From: Armatimonadota bacterium
GTDB lineage: Bacteria; Armatimonadota; HRBIN16
Length of the DNA stretch: 64,000 nucleotides
Assembly: GCA_026003175.1 (NCBI GenBank)
Contig: BPGT01000002.1
Span: 558,001-622,000, forward strand
Direction of reading: 5' to 3'
Part shown: positions 4,544-55,265 of the stretch, piece after piece
Position numbering within the stretch: the stretch's first letter is position 1
Layout: each line of letters begins with the position of its first letter
Translations under genes and position numbers: made by a program
Notes under the pieces: generated by a model
Seen by the model: the letters and a program-made list of their open reading frames with translations, nothing else
Databases searched by the model: none
What the model was told of the DNA's origin: nothing

Positions 4544-5233
4544 TTACGCACGGCGACGGCGCAATGCCATGCCCGCCAGCCCGACGATGCCGGTAGCCAG
4601 CGCCATCAGCCCGCCCGGTTCGGGAACGGGAACCAGGTTCAGCGTGACGCTACCACCGGGACGAATAGTTGAGCCATTTTCCAACGTTACTAAGGTCGTT
4701 CGGGACGAGCCTCCGCCCGGATTGTCCCAGATGTACAGCGGGTAAGGGGAATCACCAGGCATAAGCGCCTGGTTCTTCAGTTTGATATCAAAGACCTTTA
4801 CCCCTGCAGACGTGTCCACCTTAGCCGTCGCACTCAACACGATGTACCGCACACCGTACGGTCGTGTACCGGTACCGCGTGCCCCCTCGAGTGTCTTTAG
4901 TGGAGGTCCCAGGTCGGCCAGCCCCTGTATCACCGCGTCATCCAGCGTGCCGTCAAGAACGATCTTTCCATCTAAGGGGGTAGCAGCTGCTCCCATGCTG
5001 TTGGCGCGGTCGTAACCGAACATGACCTCAATCCCTTGCACCTTCTCTGGGCTGTGCTGCATCCATACCGACAGGGTGAACGACTCTCCCGGCGCCACCA
5101 TCAACTCGGTGATGGGAGTGGTGTCGCCCCCCCTGGTGAACCAGAACTGCAGTGCGCTGGCAGGGCTAAGGCTAAGCAGCATCAGCGTCGCAGACGCGAT
5201 ACCTGCTGTAAGCCAGAGACGTAAACCTTTCAT
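4544..5233 (-). CDS. Secreted PEP-CTERM sorting-domain protein
   Basis: A 229-residue exported protein with a signal peptide (MKGLRLWLTAGIASATLMLL, cleavage near ASA-LQF). The beta-rich central domain resembles cohesin-like or DUF-type extracellular modules (FTLSVWMQHSPEKVQGIEVMFGYD). The C-terminus is a typical PEP-CTERM signal: VPEPGG, a hydrophobic helix, then RRRR. Such proteins are cleaved and anchored by exosortase; no exosortase gene is in this window. The ATG has an AAAGGAG site upstream. A near-consensus sigma-70 promoter (5288-5316) and a sigma-54-like promoter further upstream (5501-5531) could both drive it. Its specific function is unknown. Confidence 0.88.
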   Translation of the reverse strand: MKGLRLWLTAGIASATLMLLSLSPASALQFWFTRGGDTTPITELMVAPGESFTLSVWMQHSPEKVQGIEVMFGYDRANSMGAAATPLDGKIVLDGTLDDAVIQGLADLGPPLKTLEGARGTGTRPYGVRYIVLSATAKVDTSAGVKVFDIKLKNQALMPGDSPYPLYIWDNPGGGSSRTTLVTLENGSTIRPGGSVTLNLVPVPEPGGLMALATGIVGLAGMALRRRRA

Positions 5234-5443: not shown

Positions 5444-5500
5444 CCCTTCCCTCCTCGGGGTAACAGGGTGCACCTGCTCAGGCTCTCCGCCCTATATATA

Positions 5501-5531
5501 ATGCAAGAATCGTACCACAAACGGGGTTTTT
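5501..5531 (-). promoter_or_regulatory. Sigma-54-type promoter block, copy A
   Basis: On the minus strand this reads AAAAACCCCGTTTG then TGGTACGATTCTTGCAT. The GG and GC are exactly 10 bp apart, as sigma-54 (RpoN) promoters require. The 31 bp are identical to 48786-48816 on the plus strand. Both copies also share an upstream A/T tract (here 5546-5565) and a similar GGGYGGA leader. It points towards the PEP-CTERM gene about 260 bp away. PEP-CTERM genes in other bacteria are often controlled by the PrsK/PrsR system with sigma-54, which supports the reading. Confidence 0.7.
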
Positions 5532-5733
5532 CGCGATTTACGAGCAAAAATTTTCGAAAATTTTTCGCCGAGAAGCCGACCGGCGAGAGGCGCAAACAGA
5601 AATATCGATTGGGACAGTCAATCCTGTCTTTAAACGCAGATTCTCTGATGGTTGACGCGCCTGTCCCGGAAGGGTAAGATTATAGTAGAATGGTGAAATG
5701 CCTTTTTGCAGTGGAGCCAGACATCTTATCGGT

Positions 5734-48461: not shown

Positions 48462-48785
48462 ATGTTTGCACCCAACCGGAGGGCGAACCTGCGGGTGAGC
48501 CGAAAACTGGTCTCTTTGCTCCTCCACCCGCAGGGGCGGATCACCTCAGTATGGGTCTGCGGCTAAAGCGCATCCTTGCAACCAACCTCTGCCTTCGCAG
48601 GGTTTTAGTAGCCAACACAGGCTGGCTTTGTCAGAACGGCTGCATCTAGAAAGACACCTACTTAAGGGTACGACGGTGTTCATTTATTTCTTAAAAAAAT
48701 AGAAAATTATTACATCATTGCAATGCAATCACACTTTCTGGCAATAGTGGCAAAAATTTTATGAAATTTTCCCCGTCAAAACCCC
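48462..48785. other. Gap before the Rhs promoter, with a strong hairpin
   Basis: This stretch has no credible gene. CCTGCGGGTG (48488-48497) and CACCCGCAGG (48525-48534) form a perfect 10-bp stem with a 27-nt loop just past the GGDEF stop; no T-run follows. An A/T tract (48751-48770) close to the sigma-54 promoter matches the tract upstream of copy A at 5.5 kb and may bend DNA or bind IHF. Activator sites are expected here but not identified. Confidence 0.5.
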
Positions 48786-48816
48786 AAAAACCCCGTTTGT
48801 GGTACGATTCTTGCAT
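48786..48816 (+). promoter_or_regulatory. Sigma-54-type promoter block, copy B, driving the Rhs gene
   Basis: AAAAACCCCGTTTG then TGGTACGATTCTTGCAT, with GG (48801-48802) and GC (48813-48814) exactly 10 bp apart, matching the -24/-12 elements of RpoN promoters. The predicted start is near 48826, 78 bp before the Rhs ATG. The 31 bp are identical, in inverted orientation, to 5501-5531. Confidence 0.78.
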
Positions 48817-48903
48817 ATATATCAGGGTGGAAAGGCTCTGCGGGCAAACGCCTTAAGCACGCATTTTGGACAACTTTTTCAAAACGAAAAAGGAGGCTTC
48901 AAA

Positions 48904-51900
48904 ATGTTACGTAAAAGGTTATTCCTGACCCCCCCCTATTAGTGTAATCCTTGCTACGTTTCTGTTCCTGCTGGTCTCCCTTGCACGAGCACAGCAACCT
49001 CCCACGCTCACCCTCCTCAATGCCGACATCGACGGCGATAATGAAGTCACCCTCTTTGACTTCGGGGCACTAACGAACGCCTTCGGCAGTGTGCCCGGCG
49101 ACCCCAACTGGAACCCCGATGCCGACCTGGACGGGGATGATGAGGTGACCCTGTTTGACTTCGGTATCCTGACCGCCAACTTCGGTCTTATCGGTGCGGA
49201 GGAGTTTGCAGGCAGCACGCAGTCGGCGTCGGGTGTGTTTACCGCCACGGTGCACGTGGTGTTGGGTGACTGGACAGCCCAGACCGACCGCGCGGTGTAT
49301 GTGGTGTTGCAGTTGAAGCGAGCGGGCACGGAGGGCGATTCGGGCACCCCCATTTACGAGCAATCGGTGACCTTCACGCAGGGTGAGGTGGAGAGGGATG
49401 TGCAGGTTCACCTTGCTGCTGGCATTTACACGGTGCGTGCGCTGGCATATAACGACGAGGCACACACCGACATCTCGCACTGGTTGCGCAGTGAGTTGAC
49501 AGGGTTCGTGGTGCCCAGTGGAGGTGGTAGCGCCCGCAACGTGGTTCCTGCTCCAACGTGGGCAGAGGAGGTCATCCCAGCGGACAGTGTCCCTTCTGGC
49601 GGGATGGGGCCCTCCAGTGCGAGCAGGGTGAATCTTGCCTCAGGGGCATACGAGCACGTTCCCCCTGCTGACCTAGAGGTGCCCAACCCGTTCGGCCCGT
49701 TTGTGGCGTTCGCCCGGCGTTATAGCAGCTGGATGGCGCAAGCAGGTATCAGTTCTCCCGGTTTGGGAGTAGGGTGGAAGCACAGCTTAGACCTTTTCAT
49801 CACCTGGGACAGAGTTTCCAACCCCACAACAGCCACATTATTCTATCCTAACGGTGCTACCGAGTCACTGGGCGCGACCCAGCAAGGTAGCGCGTATCGG
49901 TTCACGCCGCCGGAAGGGGCTCCGTATGCCGGGTTGGCAGAGCCAGACAATGCCTACCCAGGTGGCTGGCGGATTACCCTGTTCTACCGCGACTACTCGC
50001 GACTGGTTTTCGCGCCCGTTTCCGACCAGATGCTGACTGTCTTCCGTCTGGTGGGAATAGTGGACCGTGCGGGCAACGCGGTGGGGCTGTTCTACCAGAA
50101 CGGACTGCTGCGTTACGTGCGCGCTGGCGGTACTAACCTGCTGGAACTGGTGTATGACGGCAACGGGATGCTGGCGCAGGCGAAGGCGTATGACGCAGGC
50201 GCGAACAACTACGCTACTGTGACCTACACCCACCAGCAGCTAGACGACGGCAACCGCCATCTGGTGCAGGTTTCGCAGATAAATGCTCCAGCCTCCTTGC
50301 GCTGGGGGTTCGGTTATGGCTACGTGTGGACACGCCAGGACAACAGCCAGGTGCGTCTGCTGACGCACGTCAGCGCACCTGACCCGCGAGGCGGTGGGGG
50401 GATACTAACGGTTCCAGTGGCTTACGATAGCAACGGCATGGTGCAGATGCTGATGGACGCCAACGGTCATGCCCGCCGCTACGTATACCAGAACAACGGT
50501 ACGACCGATGTGGAGGTGTACAACGGCTCTACTGGCGAACTGGACTTCGGCTGGACACAGAAGCTGGGTGTGGCAGGGGTAAACGGCGGTATCGTGGATG
50601 CACTCAGCAATCAGAGCCAGCTGGTGTATGCCAACACCTACTTACCCACATCCTATACTAACCGCAATGGGCAGACTCTGCAGGCGAACTACGACCAGTA
50701 CGGTAACCCTACCACAATGATCGCTCCGCGCAACATCCGTACGGTCATCAACTACACCTATCCCGCCGACTACCCAATCAGCCCCATCCAGCAAGTAGAG
50801 GTGCGGCAGATAGCAGCCAACGGCACGGCGAAGACTTCGACCATTTACACCTTCTACACGCCTGCGGAGGAGGCGCTACAGGTTCCGGGCGCGAAGGCAG
50901 GTTTGCTCAAAGAGGTACAGTCCCCACGTCCGGGAGTATCTGGCGAGCGGGTGAGCACGCGCTATTACTATACCTCACAGGGCAATCTGGCGGTAGTGGA
51001 AGCACCGGGTGCCAACGATGCGGGGCGCAAGCGGACGACGGTGTACTTCTACGATCGCGACCCCTTCAATGGCGAGAACTTCGTGCCCTTGCTGGGGCGT
51101 CCGGTAGCGGTAGCGGTGTACGACGAGACCATCGCCAACGTCTGGGGCGAATACCAGAACTGGCTACAAAACCGCAACGACACCTTCTGGACGCAGTCGC
51201 CTCGACGGCTCATCTTCTTCGATCGGTATCGCTATGACCTGCTTGGGCGGCTTGTTTCGGTAACAGACGCCGCGGGCAACACCACCAGCTTCACCTACAA
51301 CGAGGCGAACCAGCTGGCAACGGTTACCTATCCTCCAGTAAAAGACGCAGTAAGAGACGACACGGGCAAGTGGATCCCCACGTGGGTCACCACGAAGGAG
51401 CAGTATGTGTACTGGCCAGGCGCAGGTGGACAGCTCAAGCAGGTGCTGTTGTTCGCCAATAACGTGTTCTTCCGGTCGGCGGATATTAACGTGGGCGCGG
51501 AAGGTGAGCAAAAAGGCACCACCGGCACCAGCGTTCAGCCGATACAACTGGGCTATGATGCACAATATCGACCGCTAGGTGTGGTGGACGGCAGAGGCAA
51601 CGCTACCACCTTAGGCTACACGCAAGCAGGGTTCCCCAACCTGAAGCAGTATCCTCTGGCAGATGCCTTCCAGTGGTATTACGCCCCGGTGAACCAGCAA
51701 AGCCTGTGGTGGGGCGAGGATAAGGAGGGTAACCCCGTTGCCCGGCTGGATGCCAACGGCGTGCTGACGCGCTATGTGCGGGATGCCGAGGACAGCCGAT
51801 TGCTGCGGGTAGAGTACTACAGCGAACCATACGACCCGAACAGTCTCATCAGTTCCGAGACGGTATACATCGGCTACGACGAGTTCAACCGTATCTCGCA

Positions 51901-53296
51901 GCTGGTCAACGCACAGGCGCAGATAGACTACACCTACGACGACAACGACCTGTTGCTATCGGTGACCATCACCTATCCCGCACCTGTCGGCACGAAGACC
52001 ATCAACTATCAGTACTACCCCGACGGCAGTCGCAAGAGCATGAGCGTGCCCAACGTGGGTACCTTCAACTACTATTACTACTACACCGACGGTTCCGGCA
52101 CGATGCGGGTGATGGGATCGGTGGTGCGGGTGACCTGTCCCTGGACGCTGCATCCGAATATCTCGTGCAACTATGACCAGGCAGGACGACTGCGCCGTGA
52201 AACCAACGGCGGTGTGCTCATAGACTACGACTACTACCCACGCGGGCTGCTTAGCCGACAGGTGAGTTATTCCGGAGCGGGTAACTTACTCTCTGCTTTT
52301 GCCGATTTCGATGCTGGAGGGCAGCCTACCCTAGAGGGCATCTTCTACGACGCCTCAGGCAATCGCACACATCTACTGGTAACTATCCCGCCGCAGCGAA
52401 GTGCGCTGGGCATCGCCGGGCAGATCGACTACACCTACGACAGTCGTGACCGCCTCAGCCGTGAGACCTTCACACTGGCGAATAACCAGGTGTGGTACGA
52501 CGACCAATACACCTACGACAGTGCAGATAACCCTACCTCTATCCACGGTTCCAGCTACACGCACAATGCAAACAACCAGGTCAGCAGTGCATTGTTCCAG
52601 TATGACGACAATGGCAACGCCATCCTCTTCCGGGGATTGGCTGTCGGTTTTGACCTGGAGAATCGCATAGTGCAGCTGCCCGACTTGTTTTGGGGCGGAA
52701 GCAACGTCATCACCTCGCGTTATCGTCCGGACGGCTTGCAGGCGTGGAGGCAAGACGCTAACGGGCGGGTGTACTTCCTTTACGACGGTACACGCCTTGT
52801 AGCGGAATACAGCGGCAGCAACGGTAGCCTGTTGCAGCACTTCGCCTACTCCGCCGAGGGCTTGAACCAGCGGCGTGGCAACCAACACCGACTGTTTACC
52901 TTTGACCCCGACGGCAATCTGGTGCACCGCTTGACAGCCGGTACGGTTAGTGCGTTGAGCATCACCTGGCACAACCGTTTAGGAGTGGTGTATCAAGACC
53001 AACTCGCCAGCACGGGACAACTAGTAGATGTTCCCAACGCCGGCACGGTTGGTTATCAAGGCTACCTCGGCGCCTACTCCGACGCCAGTACCCGCACCTT
53101 GGGGCAGGCACGCTTCGCCGCGCTGGTTACGTTGAACGCAGGTGGATACTTCGACCCTGTCACCGCGCAGGGGATGCAGCGCGACCTGGGTGCAGTCAAC
53201 CCCTACACCCGCCTGTATCGTCAGGGTGGCTCCCTTGCCGACCGGTTGACGAATCTGGTATATATCCTGGGCGGATGCGGGCTGGACGTCAGGTGA
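48904..53296 (+). CDS. Secreted Rhs/YD-repeat protein with N-terminal dockerin-like repeats (frameshifted)
   Basis: The ATG at 48904 follows AAGGAGG. As sequenced the frame stops after 12 codons; with seven rather than eight C at 48929-48936 it reads on as a signal peptide (ISVILATFLFLLVSLARAQQ). Two dockerin-like repeats follow (NADIDGDNEVTLFDFGALTNAFG; DADLDGDDEVTLFDFGILTANFG), then an Ig-like domain. A long run of Rhs/YD repeats, about 1100 residues, forms the shell that encloses a toxin tip. The frame ends at 53296, but removing one G near 53273 fuses it to the next gene. With both corrections 48904-53846 is exactly 1647 codons. Confidence 0.85.
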
Positions 53297-53324
53297 CCCC
53301 TCGGCGGCGGAAGGCGCGGCGTTC

Positions 53325-53846
53325 GTGAAGGCGGTCGATGCCCTGCAGCGCACCATCGGCACCGCGTGGGAGATCCAGAACATCGCAGCACTGCCCAGGC
53401 TGGCAGGCGGATTAACTCTGGCGGCAGGTGAAGCAATATCAGAACTAGGTGAGCGGGGCATTAGTATTGCCTCACGGTTACAGCGTTTAGCCCGCGTCAT
53501 AACTACCGAGGTTGAGTCGTACAGAACCTTCCGTTATCTGAAGCAGACACATCCAGAGGCAGTTGTCGAGCTTTATCATTACACAAGCGGCAAGGCCGCC
53601 CAAGAGATTATGGCATCGGGCTTTCTGCGCGGTGGGCGTGGCTTATGGCGCCTATGGGCATCCGAGGATGTCTATTTCTCCGTTTACCCAAATGCTCCAG
53701 GATGGCTTTTGAAGGGCGTTTACATGCTTGAGCCTGCCAAAACACAGGTGGTGATACCTGTCAGATTACCTCTTAAAGAGGTCATCTGGCGACCATTCGG
53801 TATTCGGATAGTGCCTGGGCCTGTGCCCATAGCCGCTGGTTACTAA
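53325..53846 (+). CDS. Rhs C-terminal tip: putative ADP-ribosyltransferase-like toxin
   Basis: A 173-residue frame that is most likely the end of the Rhs protein, reached through DAGWTSGDPSAAEGAAF just upstream. The first part (NIAALPRLAGGL, encoded at 53379-53413) is conserved in the displaced tip at 54.8 kb. The variable part includes ELYHYTSGKAAQEIMASGFL and EDVYFSVYP, resembling HYD1-type or related ADP-ribosyltransferase-like toxin domains (HYT motif, then VYFS). That match is by eye only. The next gene is 15 nt away, the normal place for an immunity gene. Confidence 0.65.
   Translation: MKAVDALQRTIGTAWEIQNIAALPRLAGGLTLAAGEAISELGERGISIASRLQRLARVITTEVESYRTFRYLKQTHPEAVVELYHYTSGKAAQEIMASGFLRGGRGLWRLWASEDVYFSVYPNAPGWLLKGVYMLEPAKTQVVIPVRLPLKEVIWRPFGIRIVPGPVPIAAGY
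53379..53413 (+). repeat. 35-bp direct repeat, copy 1 (inside the active toxin tip)
   Basis: Identical to 54786-54820 and in the same reading frame; it encodes NIAALPRLAGGL. It is the junction between the constant Rhs part and the variable toxin domain, a natural site for homologous recombination. Confidence 0.95.
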
Positions 53847-53860
53847 GGTGGAACGGTAAC

Positions 53861-54694
53861 ATGATGCGCTCAAAGAGACCTTTTTGGATTAATGCACTGG
53901 CAGCGGCGGGGAGTTGGTTTATCATCACCCTGCTATCGGCGGGTATGAGCTGGGGGATATTTATTTCTTCCCCCGGCCTGCCTTTATCTATCCGTGTCTT
54001 TGTGGCGGGCTTAACCTTTGTCCTATTGTTCGTGATGTGTCATCTTTTCTTTCTGCCCCTTTGGCATTTGGGCGTGCGTCTACTTTCTGGCGAAACGCCT
54101 GGCCCTGTCCGGCTTGGTGAAGGATTCATTGTGGATGTGGCAAGCCTACTAGCGGCAATTGTTACTTGGGGAATGGTGTTCGGCGGAAGTTTTATTGCAG
54201 GAGCAGCTTCTTACAATTTGTGCTCGCCCATTAAAATCACGGCGTTATGCATAGGGTTTTCTGTACTCCTCGCGCTCATTGCGTTGAGCATAGGTATTGT
54301 ACTAGCTGAGCCTTTCTACAAGATACTTCGCTTTGTGATGTCAGGAGGTCTCACAACATGCCTGCACCGTGCGGACGATGAGGTAGTTATTTGGCGATTG
54401 CTGAGGCTGTGGCAGCAATTGGCACATCGGCTATACCCGGTACACAACCCGTTGACCCCTGAGGAGCAGATACGATTGCTGGTTACCTACGTGCTGGATG
54501 GTAGTATATCCAGCTATGACCAATTCGTGAAGGAGGCTGGTACAGTACGCATCAAGCTATCTAATGTCAGCACTTTTGAGGAGTTGCTAGCAATTCTCGG
54601 GCAGTGTAGCACAGACAGCGGTGAATTCTCTCAGGAGTGCATTTCTTCTCATCTGAAAGATATTAACACCCTGATAGAGAAGCTATCTAAGTAA
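53861..54694 (+). CDS. Four-helix membrane protein, candidate immunity protein
   Basis: A 277-residue protein with about four membrane helices in its first 165 residues (LAAAGSWFIITLLSAGMSW; FVAGLTFVLLFVMCHLFFLPL; VDVASLLAAIVTWGMVFGG; ITALCIGFSVLLALIALSIG) and a soluble C-terminal domain (about 170-277). No family is recognised. The assignment rests only on its position, 15 nt after the toxin tip and before the displaced tip. A soluble ADP-ribosyltransferase toxin would normally need a cytoplasmic immunity protein, which leaves some doubt. AAGGTGG precedes the ATG. Confidence 0.6.
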   Translation: MMRSKRPFWINALAAAGSWFIITLLSAGMSWGIFISSPGLPLSIRVFVAGLTFVLLFVMCHLFFLPLWHLGVRLLSGETPGPVRLGEGFIVDVASLLAAIVTWGMVFGGSFIAGAASYNLCSPIKITALCIGFSVLLALIALSIGIVLAEPFYKILRFVMSGGLTTCLHRADDEVVIWRLLRLWQQLAHRLYPVHNPLTPEEQIRLLVTYVLDGSISSYDQFVKEAGTVRIKLSNVSTFEELLAILGQCSTDSGEFSQECISSHLKDINTLIEKLSK

Positions 54695-54773
54695 CGCCAT
54701 AAAAACGTGTTGAGAGCGGTCAGGACGTCCTTTTGGCAAACGGAGCGATTATCTAATAGCCTCACCACACACG

Positions 54774-55265
54774 ATGTCGTACGGTAACATCGCAGCACTG
54801 CCCAGGCTGGCAGGCGGATTGGGAGTAGGTCTACTCGATGTTGCCGAAGACCTTGCTGGCGGTGGGTTCCGCCTGGCACGGCAAACCGCACGGCAGGCGG
54901 CAAGGGAACTCCCGCCCGTGGTGATAGGTGAGAATATGGAACGGGTCAGAGCCTATGCACGGATGATTGGTGCAGAGACGATAGACGATTGGTTGGCAGG
55001 ACGCCAGTGGACTGAGGAACTCAACGCGGCGTGGATTCGCCAAATGATGCGACAAGGACGCCGTGTGATTGACATCGGACCTGACTTTACTCGACGCCTG
55101 AAGCGGTATCTCGATATCCGCGCGGGGAAGCCGAATGTTCCCTCGCCTATATCCGACCCATATAACCTTGAACGCCGCTTGCTGAAAGGCTATCCACGTT
55201 ATGAAAAGCAGTTTATCCGACGAGGCAAGTGGTGGGGCGGCGTCCTAGACCTTAGTGAACTTTGA
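54774..55265 (+). CDS. Displaced Rhs C-terminal tip (orphan toxin cassette)
   Basis: A 163-residue frame beginning with the conserved junction NIAALPRLAGGL. It continues into a different C-terminal domain: RVRAYARMIGAETIDDWLAGRQW, VIDIGPDFTRRLKRYLDI and LERRLLKGYPRYEKQF with RRGKWWGGV. I recall the IDIGPDF...GK..GG pattern from the ends of other Rhs proteins, but no activity is known to me. There is no ribosome-binding site before its ATG, so it is likely silent until recombined into the main gene. A candidate immunity gene follows at 55318. Confidence 0.7.
   Translation: MSYGNIAALPRLAGGLGVGLLDVAEDLAGGGFRLARQTARQAARELPPVVIGENMERVRAYARMIGAETIDDWLAGRQWTEELNAAWIRQMMRQGRRVIDIGPDFTRRLKRYLDIRAGKPNVPSPISDPYNLERRLLKGYPRYEKQFIRRGKWWGGVLDLSEL
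54786..54820 (+). repeat. 35-bp direct repeat, copy 2 (orphan tip junction)
   Basis: An exact copy of 53379-53413 in the same frame; the sequences diverge immediately on both sides. Recombination between the copies would delete about 1.4 kb and swap the first tip and its neighbour for the second. Confidence 0.95.

What the first reader, a model, noticed from the sequence alone, without database searches (positions are those of the whole stretch)
48751..48830. Sigma-54 promoter module shared by the Rhs gene and a PEP-CTERM gene 43 kb away
31 bp (48786-48816) are identical to 5501-5531 in inverted orientation, far beyond what a sigma-54 core requires. Both copies have GG-N10-GC spacing, an A/T tract about 30 bp upstream and a similar GGGYGGA-type leader. 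Known: PEP-CTERM genes are often under PrsR/RpoN control. Inference: a common regulon of surface proteins includes the Rhs toxin, possibly with a specific activator reading the conserved upstream AACCCCGTTTG part.
Basis: partly seen in the sequence, partly recalled or inferred. Interest (0 to 1): 0.8.

Follow-up and report, generated by a model that had tools for sequence, protein, structure and literature searches.

The report
Enhancer-less sigma-54 surface-gene regulon
The repeated 31-base block is the core of one promoter type that a hot-spring Armatimonadota genus places in front of its exosortases, surface proteins, Rhs genes and three new small RNAs; the only sigma-54 activator found in the genome lacks a DNA-binding domain, so the promoter itself probably decides which genes are switched on.

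Summary
Confirmed: 48786-48816 (+) equals 5501-5531 (-), a perfect -24/-12 sigma-54 site, and these are the only two such sites in the window. The genome has about 25 of them, against 3 hits for the reversed control pattern. They precede 9 PEP-CTERM-type proteins, both exosortases, polysaccharide export, a REC-PilZ regulator, subtilases, cold-shock and pseudopilin genes, all three full-length Rhs genes and three conserved non-coding RNAs without Rfam match. The genome has one rpoN and one sigma-54 activator (REC-AAA+, NAFTGA loop) that ends before any DNA-binding domain, as do its orthologues in 8 of 9 congeners. Across 111 genus sites the 31-bp block is simply the promoter consensus, and nothing is conserved further upstream. 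So the common regulon including Rhs is supported; a specific activator reading AACCCCGTTTG is not: the arrangement resembles enhancer-independent FlgR/CtcC. Only 4 of 27 PEP-CTERM genes above cut-off carry the site, so sigma-54 controls a subset. Also seen: the Rhs start codon is out of frame with its body across a C8 run, part of a genus-wide family of poly-C signal-peptide switches. All of this is sequence evidence; no transcription was measured.

The parts
48786..48816 (+). 31-bp block shared with 5501-5531; matches the genus-wide extended sigma-54 promoter consensus
48800..48815 (+). sigma-54 core TGGTACGATTCTTGCA (-24 GG 48801-48802, -12 GC 48813-48814) of the Rhs gene
48752..48771 (+). 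upstream A/T tracts (AAAAATTTT-ATGAAATTTT), conserved in position across the genus
48817..48833 (+). conserved ATATATCAGGGTGGAAA segment between -12 and the early transcribed region; predicted start near 48826
   Evidence: position inferred from spacing
48890..48906 (+). Shine-Dalgarno AAGGAGG and ATG of the Rhs gene
48929..48936 (+). C8 run at which the Rhs reading frame changes (ATG frame stops after 12 codons; body lies in the +1 frame)
48929..53296 (+). Rhs body: signal-peptide core, dockerin-like repeat, RHS/YD repeats (open frame of 1455 aa)
5501..5531 (-). second copy of the 31-bp block
5502..5517 (-). sigma-54 core TGGTACGATTCTTGCA of the PEP-CTERM gene; predicted start near 5491
5546..5563 (-). 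upstream A/T tracts (AAAAATTTTCGAAAATTTTT) of the second copy
4544..5233 (-). PEP-CTERM protein, 229 aa, C-terminus VPEPGG...RRRRA

Best explanation
Both sites are members of one sigma-54 regulon for the cell surface. RNA polymerase with the single RpoN binds an unusually long promoter (phased A-tracts, CCCC, TGGTACGAWTCTTGCA, TATATA). A two-component system (GAF-GAF-PAS histidine kinase plus a REC-AAA+ activator) opens all these promoters together. Because this sole activator has no DNA-binding domain, it probably acts from solution, without enhancers, so membership is set by the promoter sequence alone. The output is two exosortase/polysaccharide operons, a subset of PEP-CTERM proteins, subtilases, a REC-PilZ regulator directly behind the activator gene, three small RNAs and, in this species and one close relative, Rhs genes. 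Shown by sequence: promoter, regulon content, one rpoN, one activator without DNA-binding domain. Inferred: enhancer-independence, activation by this kinase, and transcription itself.
For: Strict pattern 30 hits vs 3 control in the genome, about 24 of the 30 intergenic and correctly oriented; longer pattern 21 vs 1; congeners 2-20 sites each with 0 control hits. One rpoN (TIGR02395 289 bits over cut-off). One PF00158 protein at 255 bits; the other four score 25-31 bits and have no GAFTGA-like loop. That protein is REC + AAA + lid and ends there. Orthologues in 8 of 9 congeners also lack a DNA-binding domain. The activator gene ends just before a sigma-54 site and a REC-PilZ gene. Both exosortases lie behind sites. 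Extended consensus from 111 sites; no k-mer shared by more than 7 of 21 own promoters further upstream. Target families are conserved between species. RNA-A has 72 pairs, 14 with double compensatory changes; RNA-C is found once in each of 9 of the 10 genus genomes, directly behind the promoter, and in no other genome searched.
Against: No transcription data. The A-tract pair can be read as a palindrome (GAAAAATTTTCGAAAATTTTTGC), so an unrelated DNA-binding protein could still read it. The genome is 97% complete, so a second activator could be missing. The 111 sites were found with a core pattern, so the core's information content is inflated; the flanks upstream of the core were not selected. 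The G001 Rhs orthologue has no sigma-54 site, so Rhs membership is not general. PEP-CTERM genes with the VPEPA/VPEPS signal mostly lack the site.
Confidence: 0.75

Rival explanations
1. Promoter choice is helped by a separate DNA-binding protein that reads the A/T palindrome at about -74 to -55 (or the CCCC stretch) and recruits the DNA-binding-less activator or bends the DNA.
For: The A-tracts are fixed in position over 111 sites and in many promoters form an inverted repeat.
Against: Only 22 of 111 sites fit a palindrome-like pattern; the tracts recur at roughly 10-13 bp down to -36, as expected for curved DNA or alpha-CTD contacts; no candidate protein identified.
Confidence: 0.2
2. A classical Prs-type regulon: PrsK/PrsR with the activator bound at an upstream element, possibly AACCCCGTTTG.
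For: Same biology (PEP-CTERM, exosortase, polysaccharide, sigma-54) as in Proteobacteria (PMC1569441, PMC9850573); the activator gives 412.5 bits to TIGR02915.
Against: Below the TIGR02915 (502.6) and TIGR02916 (109.9 vs 300) cut-offs; no DNA-binding domain; TTTACA in 8 of 115 upstream regions, 3.7 expected; no upstream element outside the promoter.
Confidence: 0.05
3. The two copies are a recent duplication or mobile promoter cassette rather than a regulon consensus.
For: The five Rhs promoters found with the strict core pattern share homology on both sides of the core and clearly spread with the gene.
Against: The 5501 and 48786 copies differ outside the core; the block equals the consensus of 111 sites before unrelated genes; the 5501 site is conserved with its own gene in relatives (L079, L081, L117, L280).
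Confidence: 0.03

Closest known systems
PrsK/PrsR/PrsT-RpoN control of PEP-CTERM genes in Proteobacteria (PMC1569441; PMC9850573)
   Same: sigma-54 promoters before exosortase and PEP-CTERM genes; two-component kinase and AAA+ response regulator
   Different: the activator lacks the Fis-type DNA-binding domain and no motif 1 is seen as a general feature; family cut-offs not met; both exosortases, Rhs and small RNAs are included; only a subset of PEP-CTERM genes is covered
FlgR of Helicobacter/Campylobacter and CtcC of Chlamydia (type Ic activators without DNA-binding domain, PMC3162934, PMC7482065)
   Same: one activator in the genome, REC + AAA+ without DNA-binding domain, no upstream element
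   Different: drives a surface/exosortase regulon, not flagella or chlamydial development; NAFTGA loop; Armatimonadota; long conserved promoter
RpoN control of T6SS-associated toxins in Pseudomonas aeruginosa (H2-T6SS, PMC8855297)
   Same: sigma-54 control of an antibacterial-type arsenal
   Different: here the Rhs protein has a signal peptide and a dockerin-like repeat; whether a T6SS is present was not tested

Membership tests
sigma-54 promoter | GG-N10-GC at -24/-12 with TGGCACG-N4-TTGCW consensus | tested here: met
sigma-54 promoter | rpoN in the genome | tested here: met
   (TIGR02395 289 bits, cut-off 277.35)
sigma-54 promoter | transcription depends on RpoN and an AAA+ activator | not testable with these tools
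   needs transcripts
Prs (PrsK/PrsR) system | activator passes TIGR02915 | tested here: not met
   412.5 vs 502.6 bits
Prs (PrsK/PrsR) system | kinase passes TIGR02916 | tested here: not met
   109.9 vs 300 bits
Prs (PrsK/PrsR) system | Fis-type DNA-binding domain and motif 1 (TTTACA) upstream | tested here: not met
enhancer-independent type Ic activator (FlgR/CtcC-like) | REC + AAA+ activator without DNA-binding domain | tested here: met
enhancer-independent type Ic activator (FlgR/CtcC-like) | functional GAFTGA loop | tested here: met
   NAFTGA in this genome and in most congeners; G1N is reported in a validated activator
enhancer-independent type Ic activator (FlgR/CtcC-like) | activates without an upstream binding site | tested here: inconclusive
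PEP-CTERM protein (window 4544-5233) | TIGR02595 above cut-off | tested here: met
   18.9 vs 16 bits; 23.1 bits in the genome scan
Rhs polymorphic toxin | RHS/YD repeats with a variable, toxic C-terminal tip | tested here: inconclusive
   repeats met; C-termini differ between copies; toxicity not tested

The most novel reading that the evidence does not exclude
A phylum-level branch of bacteria runs its exosortase/surface regulon through one enhancer-less sigma-54 activator, with specificity written into an 80-bp promoter, and the regulon also drives three undescribed small RNA families and phase-variable (poly-C) secreted Rhs genes.
Probability: 0.5. Interest if true: 0.75.

Novelty: new variant of a known kind. 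Interest (0 to 1): 0.62.

Why it matters
Sigma-54 promoters normally get their specificity from activators bound at enhancers. A genus with one DNA-binding-less activator and over a hundred recognisable promoters shows a whole regulon readable from sequence, which makes enhancer-independent activation outside Helicobacter and Chlamydia directly testable. It also links exosortase sorting, polysaccharide export, PilZ signalling, Rhs proteins and new small RNAs under one switch in uncultured hot-spring bacteria.

Tried and rejected
Chance repeat: rejected. Coding-region hits L008, L009, L010, L028, L029, L030 of the strict pattern and L049 of the relaxed one: set aside as false (L049 judged false from its context). 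All PEP-CTERM genes in the regulon: rejected, 4 of 27 above cut-off, plus one below cut-off. A second exosortase outside the regulon explaining the other PEP-CTERM signals: rejected, both exosortases lie behind sigma-54 sites. Known RNA families: none. A sigma-54 site before every gene of the poly-C family: rejected, only the full-length Rhs copies in G000 and G004 have one. Poly-C family as purely programmed frameshifting: not kept as the leading reading, since run lengths vary and 2 of 25 are in frame; interrupted runs leave it open.

Full report
Observation. The 31 bases 48786-48816 (+) are identical to 5501-5531 read on the minus strand. No shuffle gave a match. Each contains TGGTACGATTCTTGCA with GG-N10-GC. 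With a matrix from 21 promoters of this genome, the two sites score 58.1 and 68.2, and nothing else in the window exceeds 4.7 (both sites were among the 21, so their own scores lean upwards). The genes behind them are an Rhs gene (from 48904 +) and a PEP-CTERM protein (4544-5233 -).

Genome-wide. The window is G000:C2:558001-622000 of a 4.11-Mb, 7-contig genome. The strict core gives 30 hits against 3 in the reversed control. Six of the 30 lie in coding sequence and were set aside; the rest, plus one site from the relaxed pattern, give 25 intergenic sites, nearly all with a TATATA-like stretch and a GGTGGAAA-like leader. The genes behind them: PEP-CTERM-type proteins (L004, L007, L013, L016, L018, L020, L021, L025, L045), a relative of L016 cut short of its C-terminus (L017), exosortase (L024), a Wza-like export protein heading an operon that ends in the second exosortase and EpsI (L015/L227), REC-PilZ (L003), subtilases (L006, L027), cold shock (L002), a pseudopilin (L019), full-length Rhs (L014, L022) and shortened Rhs modules (L001, L005, L012). 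A third full-length Rhs (L201) has a one-base variant core and still scores 47. Three sites (L011, L023, L026) are followed by conserved non-coding RNAs.

Relatives. G003 is very probably Bacterium HR16: its contig 178 is 7945 bp like BEHS01000178.1. HRBIN16 is a class-level clade of Armatimonadota (PMC9671151). All nine congeners carry the promoter (2-20 sites at up to one mismatch, no control hits), while most other families of the phylum have none or one. Target families recur between species: exosortase, PEP-CTERM L016 and L025, cold shock, RNA-A, RNA-B, RNA-C. Rhs under this promoter was found only in G000 and its close relative G004; the 73%-identical G001 orthologue has no sigma-54 site and instead a TTGACA/TATATT-like sequence.

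What the 31 bp are. From 111 distinct genus sites (effective number 67) the conserved promoter runs, relative to T of TGG, from A-tracts at -46..-40 and -35..-29 through A at -22..-20 and -14..-10, CCCC at -9..-6 and T at -2, then TGGTACGAWTCTTGCA, any base, TATATA, and a GGTGGAAA-like start region. The core and the first TATA bases were used for finding the sites, so their information content is inflated; the upstream flank was not selected. Identity of 29-31 positions is not confined to this pair, though many other such pairs are orthologous promoters.

Regulators. There is one rpoN. PF00158 gives one strong protein (255 bits) and four weak ones (25-31 bits) without a GAFTGA-like loop. The strong one (L058:7095-8321) is REC, AAA+ and lid, 408 aa, and stops where activators normally continue into the Fis-type domain; its stop is about 35 bases before the next sigma-54 core. 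Orthologues in eight of nine congeners end the same way; the ninth genome is 77% complete and showed none. Elsewhere in the phylum the domain is present or absent; the tree needs at least two changes. The loop is NAFTGA; G1N occurs in a validated activator (PMC3162934). The upstream kinase is GAF-GAF-PAS-HisKA. Neither protein passes the PrsR/PrsK models.

Mechanism. With no DNA-binding domain, no second activator found and no conserved element beyond about -75, the simplest reading is activation from solution, as described for FlgR and CtcC (PMC3162934, PMC7482065). The phased A-tracts would then serve curvature or alpha-CTD contact (inference). A separate DNA-binding protein on the A/T palindrome is the main rival.

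Limits. Only 4 of 27 PEP-CTERM genes above the model cut-off have the site, and the sigma-54 set tends to VPEPG/PDAS-type signals while the others are mostly VPEPA/VPEPS; this was noted by eye, not tested. The first stage's 'toxin' is unproven.

Small RNAs. RNA-A (about 205 nt) folds with 72 pairs, 14 with double compensatory changes in seven species. RNA-B ends in a terminator hairpin with a CCCCCC loop. RNA-C contains the invariant TTTCCGTTCAGACACTCACT (one base varies just after it) and TTCATTCCTGCG; a covariance model finds it once in each of nine of the ten genus genomes, and in none of the other genomes searched. No Rfam match in the five loci scanned.

Frame. The Rhs ATG at 48904 runs MLRKRLFLTPPY and stops; the signal-peptide core and mature protein lie in the +1 frame from a C8 run. 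Of 25 such genes in the genus, 2 are in frame, 8 at +1 and 15 at +2, with runs of 6-11 C and five interrupted runs. Phase variation by slippage is the ordinary reading; the interrupted, out-of-frame copies leave frameshifting or locked-off copies open. Homopolymer errors cannot be excluded for any single copy.

Noticed in passing
48904-48936 and L201-L224: Family of secreted genes whose ATG and signal-peptide body lie in different frames across a poly-C run; 2 of 25 in frame, some runs interrupted but still out of frame. Phase variation or frameshifting.
   Followed up: partly
L023:1526-1733 (+): RNA-A, a ~205-nt structured RNA behind a sigma-54 site; 72 pairs, 14 with double compensatory changes; no Rfam family.
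   Followed up: yes
L026:1526-1662 (+): RNA-C, ~137 nt with an invariant CACTCACT and a TTCATTCCTGCG stretch (possible anti-SD) and terminator; once in each of 9 of 10 genus genomes, directly behind a sigma-54 site.
   Followed up: yes
L011, L124, L132: RNA-B, terminator hairpin with a conserved CCCCCC loop behind a sigma-54 site.
   Followed up: partly
L001, L005, L012: Shortened Rhs modules (about 410-430 aa) that carry their own copy of the Rhs sigma-54 promoter.
   Followed up: partly
53250-54908: Rhs C-terminus leaves the frame of the G004 orthologue near 53260; a 41-aa stretch of the orthologue's tail recurs at 54786-54908, like displaced C-terminal tips.
   Followed up: partly
48990-49170 and many loci: Dockerin-like DGDNEVTLFDFG repeat occurs in dozens of secreted proteins per genome.
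   Followed up: no
L247, L281, L248: G10, G9 and G6 runs early in other genes that have the sigma-54 promoter.
   Followed up: no
L141-L170: PEP-CTERM signals seem to split: sigma-54 genes VPEPG or PDAS type, the rest mostly VPEPA/VPEPS, although both exosortases are sigma-54 linked.
   Followed up: partly
G006:C197:2314-2460: Two divergent sigma-54 sites about 105 bp apart, one driving RNA-C.
   Followed up: no
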